Origin: Hyphomicrobiales bacterium
GTDB taxonomy: Bacteria; Pseudomonadota; Alphaproteobacteria; Rhizobiales; OSC116
Assembly (NCBI GenBank): GCA_013214705.1
Contig: JABSRZ010000005.1
Span: forward strand, 186,001-250,000
Direction: 5' to 3'
Length of the DNA stretch: 64,000 bases
Both the position numbers and the translations under genes were made by a program. The notes under the pieces were generated by a model. It searched no databases. It saw nothing but the letters and a program-made list of their open reading frames with translations, and was not told the origin of the DNA. This document shows positions 6,858 through 51,863 of this stretch, in pieces. Each line of letters begins with the position of its first letter. The first letter of the stretch is position 1.

Positions 6858-8163
6858 CTACCTTTTCATGTGCCACGATGGGCGCATTTGCCATGCGCTT
6901 GGGCAATACGAACAATATAAGGCCGGAAATAATCACCACAACTCCGCCAATTTTCCACGCTGTAGCAATGCCATAAGTTTCGGCCACATAGCCTAAACTC
7001 AACATGCCGATTAAGCCGCCCAATTGGCCGATAACCGATTGCAACGACAATAATGTCGAGCGTTTGTCATCTGGCACATAATCGTGAAAAATACTTTCGC
7101 CCGGCGCGCCCTGTGCACCAACAAATGCGTTCAGCCCAATCAATACCACCACAAATACATATATATTTGTGGTCATAGATATGCCGATGAAAACCAGCCC
7201 AGATAAGATCACCAAAAATGCCAATGCCTTGGCACTTTGCCCTTTAAACAAAGCCACAACAGGCTCTGCAAATGCTGCGCCAAGCGCAAACGAAAAGAAA
7301 TAGATAGAGCTAACAATGCCGATAAATGAAACCGCATATTGGCTATCTATCATCGGCTTGGCGAAGGGAATCCAAAAAGTTTCGAGCGCAAAGAATGCCA
7401 TAGAAATCAGCCCGACAGAGGCCAGCAAGACCGATATAATTTCATGAGCCACTGCGTAATGATAGGAATTTTTAATCACTTCGGGTACGCTGGCAAAACC
7501 GGCCTTTATGCTGGCGCTGTTAATCGGGTGTCGGTCTTCTTTGATCAAAAATATATTAAACAATAAAACAATAACCCCAATCGCCAAAGCCCCAAAAAGC
7601 GGTGCATCAAACACGCCATAGCCATTGGCCACAAACTGAGCGCCAAAATAGTCGGCCATAAAGCCGCCAGAAACTGCGCCAATTGCCAAACCACAGGCGC
7701 TAGCAAATTGGGATTTTGCCAATATAGGCACAGTGCCAAATTTAGGCGCAAGCCGCCTAAATACCTCAATATACCATGCATCCATAGTGCCAGAAGTGAG
7801 TGCCCGACCTAAACCAAATAAACTAAAACTCAGAGCCGTAAACATGTAGGATTGAAAATATAGCAAAATCAAAATGCTGCCAAGATTTGCAAATATCGAA
7901 GCGATAAACACCGGTTTGCGGCCAATGCCATCGGCCAGACCTCCAAGCGGCAATTCAAATATTAAGGTGGTGGCCGAAAACACGCCCATTAAAATCGCGA
8001 TGTCAAATAGGTTAAAGCCGCGCTCTTGCAGCATCAACACCATTATTACCAAAAACACGCCCAAGCCACCCCAATTTAAAAACTCATGAACCTGAAACAG
8101 CCGCACATGTTTACGCGCCGCAAGGGGCAAGTTTTTAAATTTATATTTCACTTGCTTTTGCAT
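6844..8163 (-). CDS. MFS transporter, tandem paralogue 1 (promoter-proximal)
   Basis: 439 residues, about 12 helices, motif A GGLADGIGRKPVF, and DDKRSTLLSLQSVIG near the end. First gene of the leftward array: it begins at an ATG at 8163, with only 70 bases between it and the divergent Nudix gene, so the operon promoter must lie in or overlap that gap. Unlike the copies downstream it starts with MQKQVKYKFKNLP rather than a double Met. It is close to paralogue 3 in its first 60 residues. General role: secondary active transporter in the inner membrane. Confidence 0.9.
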   Translation of the reverse strand: MQKQVKYKFKNLPLAARKHVRLFQVHEFLNWGGLGVFLVIMVLMLQERGFNLFDIAILMGVFSATTLIFELPLGGLADGIGRKPVFIASIFANLGSILILLYFQSYMFTALSFSLFGLGRALTSGTMDAWYIEVFRRLAPKFGTVPILAKSQFASACGLAIGAVSGGFMADYFGAQFVANGYGVFDAPLFGALAIGVIVLLFNIFLIKEDRHPINSASIKAGFASVPEVIKNSYHYAVAHEIISVLLASVGLISMAFFALETFWIPFAKPMIDSQYAVSFIGIVSSIYFFSFALGAAFAEPVVALFKGQSAKALAFLVILSGLVFIGISMTTNIYVFVVVLIGLNAFVGAQGAPGESIFHDYVPDDKRSTLLSLQSVIGQLGGLIGMLSLGYVAETYGIATAWKIGGVVVIISGLILFVLPKRMANAPIVAHEKVDDED

Positions 8164-33105: not shown

Positions 33106-33740
33106 ACATCCACTCCAGCTTCATCTACCGGCAATGTTTCTGTTTCAAGCCTGGCCGCTTGCGACCATTCCTGCATAGCAGGATGGGTTAGTAACTTATC
33201 GGCATAAATTTGCGCGTTTGAACTAAGTTTTATGCCATAGGTGTTAAACCGCGAGGCCACCGGGGTAAAAAAGCCATCTACAATGCCATAATCACCAAAT
33301 AAATAGCCATCTTGTTGGCATTTCGCCCATAAATTGTCGATATAATCTATTTCGCGCTGAACTTCTTTAGAGATATCTACTTTACGTTTTGCCCGTATAT
33401 TCATTGGCAAATCATTGCGGATATTGCCATAACCAGAATGCATTTCAGCGGTTATAGACCGGGCAATGGCGCGTTGTTTGGCATCGATTGGCCAGCCTTT
33501 ACCGGCCAAATAAACCTCAGATATATATTCGCATATCGCCAACGTGTCCCAAATCACCAAGCCTTCATCGTGCAATACGGGCATTTTGGCTGATTCCGAA
33601 TATTGCAACAAGCGCTGTCTAAGCCCATCCTCTCGCAAAGATACATTTATTTCGTCAAATTCTATATGATGGGCTTTTAACAATAACCATGGCCGTAATG
33701 ACCAAGTGGAATAATTTTTATTGGCAATAATCAATTTCAT
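33102..33740 (-). CDS. Glutathione S-transferase family protein
   Basis: 212 residues. The thioredoxin-like N-terminal domain starts LIIANKNYSTWSLRPWLLLK and has the glutathione-binding MPVLHDEGLVIWDTLAICEY segment with the usual [E/D]T/S pattern. The all-helical C-terminal domain follows. Likely conjugates glutathione to small electrophiles or reduces them; substrate unknown. Single gene, 9 bases downstream of the TIGR02186-like gene on the same strand, so probably in its operon. Confidence 0.9.
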   Translation of the reverse strand: MKLIIANKNYSTWSLRPWLLLKAHHIEFDEINVSLREDGLRQRLLQYSESAKMPVLHDEGLVIWDTLAICEYISEVYLAGKGWPIDAKQRAIARSITAEMHSGYGNIRNDLPMNIRAKRKVDISKEVQREIDYIDNLWAKCQQDGYLFGDYGIVDGFFTPVASRFNTYGIKLSSNAQIYADKLLTHPAMQEWSQAARLETETLPVDEAGVDV

Positions 33741-45811: not shown

Positions 45812-45902
45812 GGAGAGGTGGCCGAGTGGTCGAAGGCGCACGCTTGGAAAGCGTGTAGGCGGTTTTCCCGTCTCGTGGGTTCGAATCCCATCCTCTCCTC
45901 CA
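45812..45902 (+). tRNA. tRNA-Ser (anticodon GGA), CCA encoded
   Basis: 91 bases with acceptor GGAGAGG pairing with CCTCTCC, anticodon stem CACGC/GCGTG around loop TTGGAAA (anticodon GGA), a long variable arm typical of class II tRNAs, T-loop GGGTTCGAATCCC, and 3' terminal CCA at 45900-45902. The discriminator base reads T rather than the usual G. A MITE-like element begins 21 bases downstream, so the gene marks an insertion-prone boundary. Confidence 0.96.
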
Positions 45903-45923: not shown

Positions 45924-46080
45924 TGTAGCGCGGCGTTTTGGTTGATACCGTCGCGACACTTTGCTTGATACTGTTACGACGCTTAGCTTGGTACGAATTT
46001 AAGTTATTTATATTCATTTACGCAGCTATTTCGGATCATTTCAACTGTCTCTGTAGTATCATTTCAAATGTAGTGCTACA
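45924..46080 (-). mobile_element. MITE-like element, copy 1
   Basis: 157 bases starting TGTAGC and ending GCTACA. The left end has three roughly 22-base degenerate direct repeats around TTTTGGTTGATACC, TTTGCTTGATACT and TTAGCTTGGTACG. The right end has two inverted relatives (ATCATTTCAAC, ATCATTTCAAAT). The middle segment AAGTTATTTATATTCATTTA is shared with copy 3 in the opposite orientation. No coding capacity. Tandem binding-site-like ends with TG..CA termini recall IS21 or Tn7/Mu-type elements; no transposase is present in this window. Confidence 0.7.
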
Positions 46081-46153
46081 CTAGGCAAGTTTGTCACCTT
46101 TCAATTGCAAGGCCAAGCCAACGATGTTAGTTAGCCGGGGGTCCGATATCATC

Positions 46154-47695
46154 ATGCGCGCTTATTACTATCGTGAGAAACTCAACAAACACTTGAAGCA
46201 AGCCGAGGACGAAGAGTTCGTCCAACTGCTTTGGGCAACTCAGGCTTTGCAGTCGAATTACGCGATTGACACCCGGAAATTCATCCGGCCAGAGACAATA
46301 CCTGAGGGCGCAATCACAACTGACATGCCAAACAAATTCTCAATTCACAAATGGGAACTCGAAACGCTGGCCAATGAGTTGATGACTGTCCCCAAGGGTA
46401 ATCTGATCAAAGATGGAAAACTGCGTAAACTGGATTGTATGAATTTTGAAGTATCCATGCTGTGTGCATCTTGGTTGCGCAAAATAGAGAACCAGGAATA
46501 TCGGATTAACAAAAAATCGAAACCAGTTTTCCTTGAAGTGGGGCGGATAGCAGCCCGCCAATTTGGCTGGCAGAGTGGGGTTGCCAACATTCCTCAATTC
46601 TATCGGAATATGTTCGTTTATGGTCAAGGGAAATCCGCGGATTATTTTGAACGGAAATATGGGATTACCATCAACCGTTTTTCCGAAATTGGCTTCATAC
46701 TCTACGCTATGTTCACCAAGGTTCCGGTTGTTCGGAACGACGCGTTATGGGCAAAGTTAGGCGTTACATCGGGCGAAGTCGAGCTTGTGCTATCACTGAT
46801 AGCGCTACCCTTTTCAAAAGCAGCAAAACAAGCTCGGGTGAAACGTAAAGCCATCATCCATACTGCGGATAAACCAAGTATCCTGCGCGAAGCACCATGC
46901 TTGCGCTTCGGCAGTGAAGGGGAGAGAATTCGCGCTCCGTTACCAGAGCTAATCCTCGAACGGATAACCTCAGGGTTATTTTACGACGTCGTTGGCGGTG
47001 GTGACCAAATCACAAACGACTATGGAAAACGCTTCGAGAAATATTGTTTTAGTTACCTGTCTGAGGCAATGCCGGGTCTCGCATGTGAGCCAGAATTTAG
47101 GTATGGAAAAAAAGGATTCCCCTTTGACTCCCCTGACATCCTTTGTGGTAAATCTAGCAAACTCGACTTAGTCATAGAGTGCAAAGCGACACGAATGTCA
47201 CACGAAGCTATGTTTGGTAAAGACCCTATTGCTGCGAGGGGATACGAAGACCTGACAAAAGCTATCTTTCAGCTGTGGCGGTTCTTTTCACATTGCCGCC
47301 GTGGCCTGACAGGGCGTGAAGTCGCGGACGACGCTATTGGTGTTGTCTTGACACTCAATAATTGGCTTGTACTGGCTGCAACCCTTCACAAACGTGTCCT
47401 AGATGATGCGACCAAGATGGCAAACGAAAAGGAACCAGAAATTACCGCGGCTGATAAACGAGCTATCGTTTTTGTAGCTGTGCCAGAACTTGAAAGAACC
47501 TTATCTGTGGCAACGGAAAAAACGTTTAGAGAAGCTTTAATTAAAGCGGGTTCAGAAGAATTTTTAGGATGGCGATTGGATGTGATACATTCTAAATTAG
47601 TTTGTGAAGTAAAGTGTGAGGAACGGGCATATCCCTTTGCCAACGAACTTGGCAAGTTGTTGCCATGGTGGGATGAAAGATCACCCCGTGATTAA
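46154..47695 (+). CDS. Putative PD-(D/E)XK-like nuclease in a repeat-flanked accessory locus
   Basis: 513 residues from the ATG at 46154; a TTG at 46091 and an ATG at 46124 are other possible starts. I do not recognise the full family. In the C-terminal half, SPDIL (Asp328), LDLVIECKATR (Asp338, Glu342, Lys344) and flanking YGKRFEKYCFSYL fit the restriction-endonuclease-like fold, D...E-x-K. The N-terminal 290 residues have no recognised domain. No signal peptide or membrane helix. Codon use is more varied than in neighbouring housekeeping genes. It lies between MITE-like copy 1 and another element end, beside a tRNA-Ser, which suggests horizontal arrival. A defence or DNA-processing role is inference. 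Confidence 0.6.
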   Translation: MRAYYYREKLNKHLKQAEDEEFVQLLWATQALQSNYAIDTRKFIRPETIPEGAITTDMPNKFSIHKWELETLANELMTVPKGNLIKDGKLRKLDCMNFEVSMLCASWLRKIENQEYRINKKSKPVFLEVGRIAARQFGWQSGVANIPQFYRNMFVYGQGKSADYFERKYGITINRFSEIGFILYAMFTKVPVVRNDALWAKLGVTSGEVELVLSLIALPFSKAAKQARVKRKAIIHTADKPSILREAPCLRFGSEGERIRAPLPELILERITSGLFYDVVGGGDQITNDYGKRFEKYCFSYLSEAMPGLACEPEFRYGKKGFPFDSPDILCGKSSKLDLVIECKATRMSHEAMFGKDPIAARGYEDLTKAIFQLWRFFSHCRRGLTGREVADDAIGVVLTLNNWLVLAATLHKRVLDDATKMANEKEPEITAADKRAIVFVAVPELERTLSVATEKTFREALIKAGSEEFLGWRLDVIHSKLVCEVKCEERAYPFANELGKLLPWWDERSPRD

Positions 47696-47952
47696 TCTTA
47701 AATTGTTTGATCATACTTGGGGTCAAGTTGGGTAGAGGGCAGAATTGTACGTTAAGGCATTTACGCTCTGTGTAACGTACAGATAATCGATCATTTCTAC
47801 GCCGCCATCTGGTCTAATTTACACTGCCAGTGACAGACCATATTCTGCAAATCAAGTGGCTCACATTTAAGTGCCAAAAGTGGATCATTTCAACTATCGC
47901 GCTACAATTGCGGTCAGCAAACTTGTGACTGTTTGTATCTACAGCAAATACC
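47696..47952. other. Non-coding stretch with element fragment and inverted repeat
   Basis: No gene seen. A 9-base inverted repeat TGTACGTTA / TAACGTACA (47746-47754 and 47773-47781) could be a terminator-like hairpin for the nuclease-like gene. The sequence GATCATTTC at 47790 and again at 47884 matches the subterminal repeats of the MITE-like family. Confidence 0.5.
47882..47906. repeat. Solo right end of the MITE-like family
   Basis: GGATCATTTCAACTATCGCG followed by CTACA matches the right end of copy 1 (GGATCATTTCAACTGTCTCT region plus GCTACA). It lies downstream of the nuclease-like gene, so the gene is bracketed by a whole element and a right end. Confidence 0.6.
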
Positions 47953-48086
47953 TGTAGCACGGCGTTTTGCTTGATACTGCTGCGGCGTTTTGGTTGATAC
48001 CAGAATATACTATTAACTTTCGTTAATGTGGCTTATTTATACCTTTTTAAATGTCGCATTAGTATTAATTCAAATTTCGCTCTACA
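47953..48086 (-). mobile_element. MITE-like element, copy 2
   Basis: 134 bases starting TGTAGCAC and ending CTCTACA. The left end has two 22-base repeats (GGCGTTTTGCTTGATACT and GGCGTTTTGGTTGATACC); the right end has GTATTAATTCAAATTTCGC, an inverted relative. The middle is diverged from the other copies. Non-coding. The remaining bases to the SRPBCC stop (48087-48195) show nothing else. Confidence 0.65.
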
Positions 48087-48195: not shown

Positions 48196-48696
48196 TTAGC
48201 CCAAAGTCTGCTGTAAATCTTCAATATATTTATCCATAGTTGCATGATGCCCAATGATAAACTTTCCGACAAAGCGGAAAATTAAGTTATAAACCTCACC
48301 ATGCTCGGTGATAGTCAGCTGCGTTTGATTGCCCTGTGCAACCAGATCAAATGTCCACCGACCACCAAACAAGAGGTTTTCGCCGACGACTTGGCGAACT
48401 AGTTTTTTCGCTTCGATCAGCTCAAGGGTTTTAAAGGCCATGAAACTTTTTTCATTTTCATATTCCTGCCAAATCTCATCGCCCTTAACATTTTTATTTG
48501 CACTCACTCTTACAATGTCTCTGCGCCATTTTGCCATATTCGCAAAGTCGGTTAACTTGTGCCAGACTACATCAGTAGGTGCTTTAAGCAATATGGTTCG
48601 GCTCGCCATATGGTTAACTGGCAGCAGTGCCGCAACCAAAAAAATCAACCCGATTATTGCTATAAAAACCCCAAGCCCGATCAATAAATAATTCAT
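48196..48696 (-). CDS. SRPBCC-fold protein (polyketide cyclase-like) with N-terminal helix
   Basis: 166 residues. A hydrophobic N-terminal helix (LGVFIAIIGLIFLVAALL) is followed by an SRPBCC domain with ASRTILLKAPTDVVWHKLTD, AKWRRDIVRV and the C-terminal helix segment MDKYIEDLQQTL. The fold binds hydrophobic ligands. It is divergent from a MarR regulator gene (67 bases between), a typical regulator-target layout. Confidence 0.82.
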   Translation of the reverse strand: MNYLLIGLGVFIAIIGLIFLVAALLPVNHMASRTILLKAPTDVVWHKLTDFANMAKWRRDIVRVSANKNVKGDEIWQEYENEKSFMAFKTLELIEAKKLVRQVVGENLLFGGRWTFDLVAQGNQTQLTITEHGEVYNLIFRFVGKFIIGHHATMDKYIEDLQQTLG

Positions 48697-48763
48697 ATCT
48701 ACTCCATTTTTGTCTATAATCGAGTTTTCTATGTCACAAGTCTATAATATTTAGGTAAACCGA

Positions 48764-49189
48764 ATGAATGATCGCATTTTAGAAATTCAAAAATTATACC
48801 CACGCATCTATATGGCGTGTCATGTTGAACATGTTAAAAAGCGCTCATCAAAGGGGCAAATTTCATCGCGCGACGCTGGCATATTAGCACATTTAGAACA
48901 AGGGCATTTTCAGTCACCTAAAACCCTTGCCAAACATTTAAACATTGCTGCATCGACGCTATCAGAAGCATTGCACAATATGGTCGCATTGGGTTTTGTC
49001 AGCTTTAAAATCGACGAGAATGACGCACGGCAAACGAAGTTTTCACTCACTAATGATGGTGCAAAAGCCATCAGCCAAAACTCGGTGTTGGATGCCAATA
49101 AAATCGCCAATATGCTCGCGCGATTGTCCGAAGAAGATCAGCAGAAAGTCATAGATGGCTTAAAGTTGTTCGCCAATGCAACCTATTGA
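48764..49189 (+). CDS. MarR-family transcriptional regulator
   Basis: 141 residues. Winged-helix region ISSRDAGILAHLEQGHFQSP and KHLNIAASTLSEALHNMVAL, wing KIDENDARQTKFSLTNDG, then a C-terminal helix for dimerisation. MarR proteins usually repress a divergent gene and respond to small phenolic or other ligands; the SRPBCC gene is the obvious target. The shared 67-base gap contains the direct repeat GTCTATAAT (48712 and 48740), which may form overlapping -10 boxes. Confidence 0.88.
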   Translation: MNDRILEIQKLYPRIYMACHVEHVKKRSSKGQISSRDAGILAHLEQGHFQSPKTLAKHLNIAASTLSEALHNMVALGFVSFKIDENDARQTKFSLTNDGAKAISQNSVLDANKIANMLARLSEEDQQKVIDGLKLFANATY

Positions 49190-49210: not shown

Positions 49211-49344
49211 TATAGCGCGACGTTTTGAACGATACCACTGCGCCATTAGAATGATCTAAAAATAGCTACATAAATGAATATAAATAACCTAAATTGGTAT
49301 CAACCAAAACGCAGCAACGGTATCATTCAAAACGTCGCGCTACA
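49211..49344 (+). mobile_element. MITE-like element, copy 3 (inverted relative to copy 1)
   Basis: 134 bases starting TATAGCGCGACGTTTTGAAC and ending with its near-perfect inverted copy (CATTCAAAACGTCGCGCTAC then A). The inner part AATGAATATAAATAACCTAA is the reverse complement of the copy 1 middle. Right end has two repeats, GGTATCAACCAAAACGC and GGTATCATTCAAAACG. The rest of the gap before the next gene (49345-49621) holds no gene that I can support. Confidence 0.75.
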
Positions 49345-50800: not shown

Positions 50801-51863
50801 TTTTTTACTCTCATTGTGGTTTAATCAAATCGAGCATATAAATATATTTGTACATTAGCAATTGCTAATATTGTCGCACCCCACAATTAATATTGCCTGC
50901 TGCGTGCAAGTGATTTTTCTGCGGATTTTAAGTGAAGTTAATTGGTTTCTATAAAATTTGGTTTGGTGTAGCTCCATTTCTGAATTGATACTGAGGCTCA
51001 CTTTAGTCATAGCTTTAAGAGTAGTAATTCAATTGAAGCCCTCCATAGTTCTCTCAGGACTCGCTGTGGAATCGCTGGGCTGCAATCTAGCCTTACCCAC
51101 CAGAGCGCCTTAAACGAGCCCTGTTGACTCTTAAAACGAGCCTTAGCATTTTGTTAAGCCTAACTATTAAATAAGTCAATAAAATCAGATTATTAAACAC
51201 AAATCACTGAACAAAATATAAGTTCACCCCTTTGCGTAAATGGAGGGTAGCCAGTGAGTGGTTTTGAAGTCGACAATTTGTCTGAGCTTGAAGTAGAAAT
51301 GCTTGAACGAGAATATAATCACGAGGCAAAATGTCCTCGGCTGGCTCTGAGCGAACCATGAGCCGTTTTATAAAAGCTCAACTTGACGGCAGGGAAAATC
51401 AGACCGAATATGGATCAGAACTCGAAGGAGTTGCCATAGAAGCGGTCTTAGCAAAGCTCGAAGTTCCAATTAGGGGCAATCGATTTGTAGCAACCAAAAT
51501 AATTAGGCCTCTAAGCACTCCTCAATCTCCTGATAGATTGTATAGCCAATCGTAAATTGAAATTCTGAACCTAATCCCATTTGCATATTATGGCTCCATA
51601 TCGGCTATCAGTTTTATTTTTCCTTTAAAGTCGCTTCATAGGTAAATCTTAAGAAGTATTTAAAAGCGCCCCACTATATCTTCAGAGAATATGAACTTAT
51701 CTGCCCGAATATTGCACTGTAGATATCTCTCAAGAAATGACTATAATCAAAGATCCGGTTACACGTTAAAAAATCCGAATCCTAGGGGCTCTCTTGGTGG
51801 CAATCTATAATTGTTTGCGACAAATTATTTTCACACATCCGAATTAATACGGCAGGAAAAATT
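50801..51863. other. 1-kb poorly coding stretch with possible gene remnant
   Basis: Most of this stretch has no supportable gene. The only coding-like part is at 51254-51555: a GTG-started 35-codon frame (51254-51361, after GGAGGG; SGFEVDNLSELEVEMLEREY) overlaps a second frame (51331-51555; 74 codons, FIKAQLDGRENQTEYGSELE). They could be two halves of one frameshifted small gene. No family recognised. Confidence 0.4.

What the first reader, a model, noticed from the sequence alone, without database searches (positions are those of the whole stretch)
46154..47906. Nuclease-like gene bracketed by element ends next to tRNA-Ser
Seen: a 513-residue protein with an E-x-K nuclease-like core lies between a whole MITE-like element (ending GCTACA at 46080) and a solo right end (47882-47906, ending GCTACA). 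The upstream 290 residues match no family that I know. Inference: the gene may be cargo of a larger unit using the same ends, mobilised in trans, and may be a single-gene defence nuclease.
Basis: partly seen in the sequence, partly recalled or inferred. Interest (0 to 1): 0.65.

Follow-up and report, generated by a model that had tools for sequence, protein, structure and literature searches.

The report
Mobile GapS1-like anti-phage nuclease gene
A bacterial gene beside a serine tRNA encodes a distant relative of the anti-phage protein GapS1, probably a nuclease; its relatives appear to move between genomes as a single gene, in one case as a tiny element set into a tRNA gene, while the repeat ends seen around it here are probably bystanders.

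Summary
In detail: a 513-residue gene (46154-47695) lies between a 157-bp element (45924-46080) and a lone element end (47882-47906), 252 bp past tRNA-Ser(GGA). Both ends exceed chance. The protein is a divergent homologue of the anti-phage protein GapS1 (61 bits, E 7e-17, far below the curated cut-off of 320; profile-profile E 7.5e-13 over 395 columns), with a helical N-terminal domain and a PD-(D/E)XK nuclease domain whose E295, D328, E342, K344 and Q373 are invariant in 47 of 47 aligned proteins. 'Single-gene defence nuclease' is well supported by homology, untested by experiment. 'Cargo using the same ends' is not supported: no target duplication, and 0 of 70 homologous loci carry such ends. 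The ends resemble those of Mu-like prophages of this genus. Relatives lie on plasmids, in phage contigs and beyond tRNA 3' ends, once as a 1,760-bp single-gene element between perfect 29-bp tRNA-Met repeats. The same tRNA-Ser carries an interrupted integrase or a DRT8 defence system in sister species. Best reading: a horizontally acquired GapS1-like gene at a tRNA hotspot, surrounded by mini-Mu-like repeats.

The parts
45812..45902 (+). tRNA-Ser (GGA); integration hotspot in sister species
   Evidence: ARAGORN; beyond the same tRNA, G005 has a P4-type integrase interrupted by an in-frame stop, G003 an integrase fragment, G001 a TGTAGC right end with DRT8
45924..46080 (+). E1, 157-bp MITE-like (mini-Mu-like) element: right-type end at 45924 with site-like repeats at 45932, 45955, 45978; left-type end at 46080
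46154..47695 (+). GapS1-like PD-(D/E)XK nuclease gene, 513 aa
46154..46891 (+). N-terminal helical domain (residues 1-246)
   Evidence: model pLDDT 87.2 for the whole protein, 86.5 for residues 1-250 alone; the only chain above Z 5 among 114 compared is Upx 771-1067
46898..47479 (+). PD-(D/E)XK domain (residues 249-442) with E295, D328, E342-x-K344, Q373
   Evidence: invariant in 47 of 47; D, (D/E)-x-K in 6 of 6 and E in 5 of 6 GapS1-type rows; fold
47882..47906 (-). lone left-type end of the same element family
   Evidence: 28.7 bits against at most 15.4 in shuffles; no second site inside
47953..48086 (+). E2, element of the same family
49211..49344 (-). E3, element of the same family, inverted relative to E1 and E2
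50967..51045 (+). E4, short degenerate element (one end 24.5 bits, the other 13.8, the latter within the range of shuffles)
48196..48696 (-). SRPBCC (polyketide cyclase-like) gene, next to tRNA-Ser here but at another conserved place in sister species
48764..49189 (+). MarR-type regulator gene, neighbour of the SRPBCC gene in sister species too

Best explanation
The gene is a horizontally acquired, single-gene anti-phage nuclease of the broad GapS1 superfamily (an alphaproteobacterial clade distinct from curated GapS1). Inferred action: the helical N-terminal domain holds the enzyme in check or recognises a product of infection; once triggered, the C-terminal PD-(D/E)XK domain uses D328, E342 and K344 to bind metal and cleave DNA, stopping phage replication directly or by killing the infected cell. 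It entered as cargo at an integration hotspot beyond the 3' end of tRNA-Ser. The repeats around it are miniature elements of the host genus, derived from Mu-like phage ends, that gathered in the same intergenic region; they are not the gene's own vehicle. Shown here: homology, predicted fold, invariant active site, other cargo at the same tRNA in sister species, a single-gene tRNA-bounded copy in a relative. Inferred: triggering, substrate, and the route into this particular genome.
For: GapS1 HMM hit E 7e-17, and in 46 of the 47 aligned proteins, window included, at E <= 0.001; profile-profile match to a six-sequence GapS1-type alignment, 395 columns, probability 97.8, E 7.5e-13; invariant E295/D328/E342/K344/Q373 in 47 of 47, largely kept in GapS1-type rows; confident model whose closest solved folds include nucleases: Nt.BspD6I Z 10.6, FokI 9.8, McrBC 7.7, Can2 and NucC 7.3. 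Patchy spread: 2 of 101 relatives and 2 of 385 class genomes, own genome included in both, none of 5 sister species, yet 54 loci in the genome collection, 20 plasmid records and 7 viral contigs. Defence-like neighbours in some: helicase/AAA pairs (L045; L053 by my reading), UvrD with ThiF and multiubiquitin genes (L043), reverse transcriptase (L048). tRNA link: 8 of 54 loci hold a tRNA; in 5 of the 8 it lies within 500 bp, each time with the gene on its 3' side (P 1e-4 under even spread; the 500-bp limit was set after seeing the data), as in the window. L054: 29-bp perfect repeat of the tRNA-Met 3' end, 1,760 bp apart, one gene between. Same tRNA-Ser in sisters: interrupted integrase, or DRT8 at 461 bits plus RTasPDDEXK at 217 bits. 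0 of 70 homologous loci share the window's ends.
Against: The GapS1 score is far below the curated cut-off (61 of 320). No phage assay is known to me for this clade. The window itself has no tRNA-end direct repeat (best 16 of 25, at 33615) and no integrase next to the gene, so tRNA-targeted entry here is inferred from relatives and sisters. Of the window and the 5 tRNA-adjacent homologues, only L054 has a clear repeat. Most homologous loci (46 of 54) hold no tRNA in the stretch held. G+C of the gene (0.462) is like that of its neighbours and gives no sign of recent arrival. Foldseek alone gives no PDB match below E 0.012.
Confidence: 0.6

Rival explanations
1. The gene is what remains of a Mu-like prophage: lysogeny cargo sitting just inside the phage's left end (lone end at 47906) and transcribed toward it; the rest of the prophage was lost by deletion up to E1.
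For: The lone end is left-type (17-21 of 25 to seven left-type ends, 15-17 of 25 to six right-type ends). MuA-like genes with such left ends exist in the genus (L145, L146). In a Thioclava plasmid a 51%-identical homologue follows an S24 peptidase-type (repressor-like) gene near a Mu-type transposase gene. A GapS1 above the cut-off sits by repressor and integrase in a Klebsiella P2-type phage.
Against: No phage gene remains beside it; only 73 bp separate E1 from the gene. No second left-end site in the 180 bp inside the lone end, whereas L145 and L146 each have two within about 200 bp. No MuA match in the own genome, though the query was distant. Among L041-L103 only the Thioclava locus gave a match to the two MuA queries, itself, and its prophage end was not located.
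Confidence: 0.22
2. One reading: 45924-47906 is one transposable unit, a gene captured between two ends of the MITE family and moved in trans by a transposase.
For: Ends in correct inverted orientation; a second chromosomal segment (SRPBCC-MarR) bracketed by E2 and E3 is at another place than in sister species; element ends are clustered here, 5 of the 10 own-genome matches within 3.4 kb.
Against: No target duplication at 45924/47906 or at E1-E4; E1 is already complete; the ends do not occur at any of 70 homologous loci in the stretches held; the vacated SRPBCC-MarR site shows no similarity to the elements.
Confidence: 0.12
3. The protein is a nuclease with another job (selfish restriction-like or DNA-repair enzyme), not phage defence.
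For: The nuclease fold is shared with restriction enzymes; no experiment on this clade; the PADLOC 2023 library has no convincing model for it.
Against: Homology over most of its length to a family named for anti-phage activity, patchy spread on plasmids, phage contigs and loci with defence-like neighbours.
Confidence: 0.06

Closest known systems
GapS1 / GAPS1 (NCBIfam NF047931; cited to Mahata et al. 2024 on Gamma-Mobile-Trio elements, paper not held)
   Same: Single gene; co-linear over about 395 columns; same order of catalytic residues E, D, (D/E)-x-K; found in a prophage
   Different: 61 bits against a cut-off of 320; 50 rows with the window fall in one group (support 95) and six GapS1-type rows in another (support 98), with long branches; E-x-K throughout, where 4 of 6 GapS1-type rows have D-x-K; the 54 loci are all alphaproteobacterial by record title
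Upx (PDB 9wuf, residues 771-1272; Upx is listed among anti-phage systems in PMC12629846, passages seen)
   Same: The only one of the 50 rows shown that covers both domains: Z 10.4 over 359 residues for the whole model; Z 8.2 over 207 residues for the N-terminal domain alone, next best 3.0
   Different: Upx is a far longer chain (1,212 residues held); rmsd 5.3-8.2, identity 8-11%; no sequence match
Nicking and type IIS nucleases (Nt.BspD6I, FokI), CRISPR/CBASS nucleases (Can2, Card1, NucC), McrBC
   Same: Nuclease core, Z 7-10.6
   Different: Alignments start at about residue 142 or later; the N-terminal domain is mostly not matched
Mu-like transposable prophages of the same genus
   Same: Terminal 25-bp sites and repeated 18-bp GGCGTTTTGNTTGATACC sites resemble those of E1-E3
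   Different: The window elements are 79-157 bp, carry no transposase gene and show no target duplication
DRT type 8 defence system at the same tRNA-Ser in sister G001
   Same: Defence cargo beyond the same tRNA, inside a TGTAGC right end
   Different: Reverse transcriptase plus RTasPDDEXK partner; different genes

Membership tests
GapS1 (NF047931) | Score at or above the curated cut-off of 320 bits | tested here: not met
   61.3-61.5 bits
GapS1 (NF047931) | Homology along most of the model | tested here: met
   Model positions 78-428 of 455; profile-profile 395 columns, E 7.5e-13
GapS1 (NF047931) | PD-(D/E)XK active site in the columns where GapS1 has it | tested here: met
   47 of 47; aligned with six GapS1-type rows
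GapS1 (NF047931) | Protects bacteria from phage | not testable with these tools
   No assay
PD-(D/E)XK nuclease superfamily | Fold with catalytic D and (D/E)-x-K on the core strands | tested here: met
   Model pLDDT 87.2; D328 next to strand 329-333, E342 and K344 in strand 336-344; nuclease folds up to Z 10.6; Foldseek alone weak, E 0.012
Upx C-terminal part | Same two-domain fold | tested here: inconclusive
   Z 10.4 and 8.2 with rmsd 8.2 and 5.3; helical parts score easily
   Best flank match 2 of 4 for 45924-47906
   0 of 70 loci reach 18 bits; best 16.5
   Gene not found in the 5 sisters, but the four in which this tRNA was found have other DNA beyond it
Mu-derived miniature element (E1-E4) | Ends homologous to Mu-like prophage ends | tested here: met
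   E1 right end 25 of 25 to L105; 18-bp sites also in L124 and in the left ends of L145, L146 (2 of 6 loci with a full MuA-like ORF). Caveat: a right end and a MuA gene were never seen on one contig, and phage genes at L124 are named by my reading
Mu-derived miniature element (E1-E4) | 5-bp target duplication (Mu rule, recalled) | tested here: not met
   Best 3 of 5 (E3)
tRNA-targeted integrative element | Gene lies beyond the tRNA 3' end | tested here: met
   Gene starts 252 bp past tRNA-Ser; 5 of 5 near-tRNA homologues likewise on the 3' side
tRNA-targeted integrative element | Direct repeat of the tRNA 3' end on the far side | tested here: not met
   Window: none, best 16 of 25 at an unrelated place. 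Present in L054: 29 of 29

The most novel reading that the evidence does not exclude
Alphaproteobacterial GapS1-like genes are minimal one-gene integrative elements: about 1.8 kb, without their own integrase, mobilised in trans by resident tyrosine integrases into tRNA 3' ends (seen with both repeats at tRNA-Met in Alpha proteobacterium Mf 1.05b.01), and their two-domain fold is also the C-terminal module of the much larger defence protein Upx.
Probability: 0.3. Interest if true: 0.68.

Novelty: new variant of a known kind. Interest (0 to 1): 0.5.

Why it matters
It places a clade of mobile nucleases (54 loci in the genome collection alone, plus plasmids and viral contigs) next to a known anti-phage protein, with named catalytic residues to test. 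It offers a concrete case of a defence-type gene between tRNA repeats with no integrase of its own. It points to a structural link between two defence proteins, GapS1-like and Upx, filed apart. It also shows that MITE-like brackets around a gene need not be its vehicle: here they appear to derive from Mu-like phage ends and mark a rearranged hotspot.

Tried and rejected
IS21-type origin of the ends: the only two IS21 matches in the own genome were below the cut-off, and the ends resemble Mu-like prophage ends instead. Mu-type left-end architecture for the lone end (second site inside): rejected, best inner site -2.6 bits, no better than shuffles. A degenerate tRNA repeat at L101 (18 of 25): rejected, 12 of 300 shuffles reach it and it overlaps the start of the gene's ORF. 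A 17-bp flanking repeat at L093 was seen but not explained. Flanking direct repeats overall: 55 loci were given, 52 had both flanks; 3 of 52 had 16 bp or more (L054 29; window 20, which is the element site shared by E1 and E2; L093 17) against 0 of 150 mismatched pairs. Phage records: no match in 50,697. IMG/VR: 0 contigs with the exact right-end pattern. Solved structures by sequence: nothing convincing; best rows are designed armadillo repeats (E 5.5e-5), taken as chance similarity of helical repeats. The lone-end region has no match in plasmids. Papers: the GAPS1 primary paper is not held; I saw only passages of PMC12774648, PMC12908700, PMC12259885, PMC12715929 and PMC12629846 and search listings otherwise. 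Two searches for miniature inverted-repeat elements with Mu-like phages listed no paper on that link that I could recognise from title and abstract start; this is not proof of absence.

Dropped rows: of the 54 loci, 46 went into alignment A2 with the window; L083 was left out because its stretch has one internal stop, and L063, L067, L074, L096, L101, L102, L103 as partial or uneven matches. The N-terminal alignment A3 used 38 of the 47. L184 was left out of the tree. One search left out L046, L047, L063, L067, L094, L096, L101-L103. In the tree I labelled the Klebsiella row 'below cut-off' before one search showed it is above (393 bits). The end matrices were built from ends outside the window that include those of L124, L127, L145 and L146, so the scores of those four loci are not independent.

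Full report
WHAT WAS CLAIMED AND WHAT IS THERE. The finding describes a 513-residue, nuclease-like protein between a whole MITE-like element and a lone end, next to tRNA-Ser. The coordinates check out: tRNA-Ser(GGA) 45812-45902, element E1 45924-46080, gene ATG 46154 to stop 47695, lone end 47882-47906. Using matrices built only from ends outside the window, E1 scores 42.0 and 29.4 bits and the lone end 28.7 bits; the best score in 20 shuffles of the whole window was 15.7. Three more elements lie downstream: E2 47953-48086, E3 49211-49344 (inverted) and the degenerate E4 50967-51045. Of ten end matches (up to 2 mismatches) in the 3.5-Mb genome, five fall within 3.4 kb here; counted as eight elements, three in such a span has a simulated probability of 0.00015.

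THE PROTEIN. Pfam, PADLOC and PHROGs give nothing convincing. NCBIfam gives one hit, antiphage_GapS1 (NF047931), E 7.4e-17, 61 bits, against a cut-off of 320; all 11 members of a first alignment and 46 of 47 of a larger one also hit it. A search of 398 genomes of the phylum with that model found 11 with a match, 3 above the cut-off, with scores spread between. A profile-profile comparison of the 47 with six GapS1-type sequences aligns 395 columns, probability 97.8, E 7.5e-13. In a tree of 59 rows, 50 rows including the window form one group (support 95) and six GapS1-type rows another (support 98), with long branches that make the joints unsure.

ACTIVE SITE AND FOLD. E295, D328, E342, K344 and Q373 are invariant in 47 of 47. 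In the six GapS1-type rows the same columns hold E (5 of 6, one Q), D (6 of 6), D or E (4 and 2), K (6 of 6) and Q (5 of 6). The predicted model (pLDDT 87.2, pTM 0.87) has a mostly helical N-terminal half and an alpha/beta half with D328 and E342-x-K344 at the core strands. Foldseek alone is weak: best PDB match EcoT38I restriction enzyme, E 0.012; among viral models all E values exceed 0.01, with a phage restriction endonuclease at probability 0.98. The second look by VIA-align gives Nt.BspD6I Z 10.6, Upx 10.4, FokI 9.8, McrBC 7.7, Can2 and NucC 7.3. Upx (9wuf) is the only one of the 50 rows shown that covers both halves; the N-terminal domain predicted alone (pLDDT 86.5) finds, among 114 chains compared, only Upx 771-1067 above Z 5 (Z 8.2, 207 residues, 5.3 A; next 3.0). 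Helical domains score easily, so this is a lead and not a proof.

WHERE RELATIVES LIVE. One scan of the genome collection gave 54 loci; plasmid records 20, of which 5 are distant Pseudomonas matches at 21-23%; phage records 0 of 50,697; viral contigs 7. Among relatives of the host the gene is rare: 2 of 101 and 2 of 385 genomes, own genome included, and none of the 5 sister species. Contexts differ. By my reading of translations: beside purH- and cytochrome-c-biogenesis-like genes (L052), beside an AAA/helicase pair (L053, similar to the pair of L045), among metabolic genes (L074), by a recombinase-like gene (L051). By annotation: near a UvrD helicase with multiubiquitin and ThiF genes (L043), an AAA/helicase pair (L045), a reverse transcriptase and S8 peptidase (L048), and in a Thioclava plasmid just after an S24 peptidase gene near a transposase and ParB gene (L041). 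In the six viral contigs looked at, of seven, phage-like genes lie around it in most (my reading). A GapS1 above the cut-off (393 bits) sits by repressor and integrase in a Klebsiella P2-type phage.

tRNA LINK. ARAGORN found a tRNA in 8 of the 54 loci; in 5 it is within 500 bp of the gene (L054, L070, L092, L098, L101), each time with the gene on the 3' side, P about 1e-4 if the eight were spread evenly; the limit was set after seeing the data. The window has the same arrangement. In L054 the last 29 bases of tRNA-Met recur perfectly on the far side of the gene, 1,760 bp away; the gene (537 codons) is the only ORF of more than 104 codons between them. Over 52 loci, flanking direct repeats of 16 bp or more occur at 3 (L054, window, L093) and in 0 of 150 mismatched pairs. 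The other tRNA-adjacent loci and the window show no such tRNA repeat. This makes a single-gene stretch bounded by tRNA repeats real in one relative and a similar history plausible for others.

THE HOTSPOT. The same tRNA-Ser was found in four of five sister species. In G005 a P4-type integrase, whose arm and catalytic parts are separated by an in-frame stop, starts about 170 bp beyond it; G003 keeps an integrase-like fragment; G001 shares the leading sequence with G005 and then has, 230 bp beyond the tRNA, a TGTAGC right end followed by a 251-aa protein and a reverse transcriptase that score 217 bits as RTasPDDEXK and 461 bits as Drt8. Continuous identity between window and sisters stops at the tRNA 3' end, before E1 begins. 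So this place seems to receive integrase and defence cargo repeatedly.

WHAT THE ENDS ARE. The ends resemble Mu-like prophage ends of the genus. G003:C77 has a right end with, inside, Dam-like and tail-like genes and, outside, a glycosyltransferase-like ORF running into it (my reading). Loci L145 and L146 have MuA-like ORFs (L145: integrase core, Mu-transpos_C and a sub-threshold Mu DNA-binding domain), TGTAA left ends, and each two internal 18-bp sites like those of E1 within about 200 bp. Four other loci with full-length MuA-like ORFs (L144, L147-L149) showed no such site in the stretch held. These ends served to build the matrices, so their own scores prove nothing. No MuA match was found in the own genome, but the query was distant.

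DO THE ENDS CARRY THE GENE? The tests give no support: no duplication for 45924/47906 or E1-E4; 0 of 70 homologous loci reach 18 bits for either end type, best 16.5; E1 is already a complete element; and no second site lies inside the lone end. In favour of some rearranging role: the neighbouring SRPBCC-MarR pair, flanked by E2 and E3, sits between an MFS-like and an EamA-like gene in G001, G002 and G005, and next to the EamA-like gene at a contig end in G004, while in the own genome that place lacks it (330 bp, no similarity to the elements) and the only copy is here. Replicative Mu-type transposition, or recombination between dispersed copies, could shuffle such segments; this is inference from recalled knowledge of Mu.

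CONCLUSION. A hypothetical gene is a divergent, mobile GapS1-like protein with an intact nuclease site, most likely a single-gene phage defence, sitting in a tRNA hotspot. The bracket of repeats is real but probably incidental. What is new is the clade, its invariant active site, the tRNA-bounded single-gene copy in a relative, and the possible kinship with Upx. That GapS1 protects against phages rests on published statements seen as passages only.

Noticed in passing
window 48196-49189: An SRPBCC-MarR gene pair is not at the place it has in sister species (MFS-pair-EamA) and lies instead between inverted elements E2 and E3; the expected place on contig C15 of the own genome lacks it.
   Followed up: partly
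L027 66-2302 (sister G001): A DRT8 reverse transcriptase with its RTasPDDEXK partner lies inside a TGTAGC Mu-like right end, 230 bp beyond the same tRNA-Ser.
   Followed up: partly
L054 7845-9681: A 1,760-bp single-gene stretch between perfect 29-bp repeats of the tRNA-Met 3' end, without an integrase gene inside.
   Followed up: yes
L145 and L146: Mu-like prophages of the genus with TGTAA left ends; at L145 the left end interrupts an integrase-like ORF (my reading).
   Followed up: partly
   Followed up: partly
own genome, many contigs: A separate family of about 100-bp repeats (positions 7793-7900 of the query stretch L031:3432-13297) occurs in more than ten places at 83-94% identity.
   Followed up: no
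L093 7841 and 10293: A 17-bp direct repeat flanks the GapS1-like gene of Rhizobium sp. BK196 (none of 150 control pairs reached 16 bp); origin unknown.
   Followed up: partly
L064 and L078: Caulobacter sp. RHG1 carries two diverged copies of the gene about 32 kb apart on one contig.
   Followed up: no
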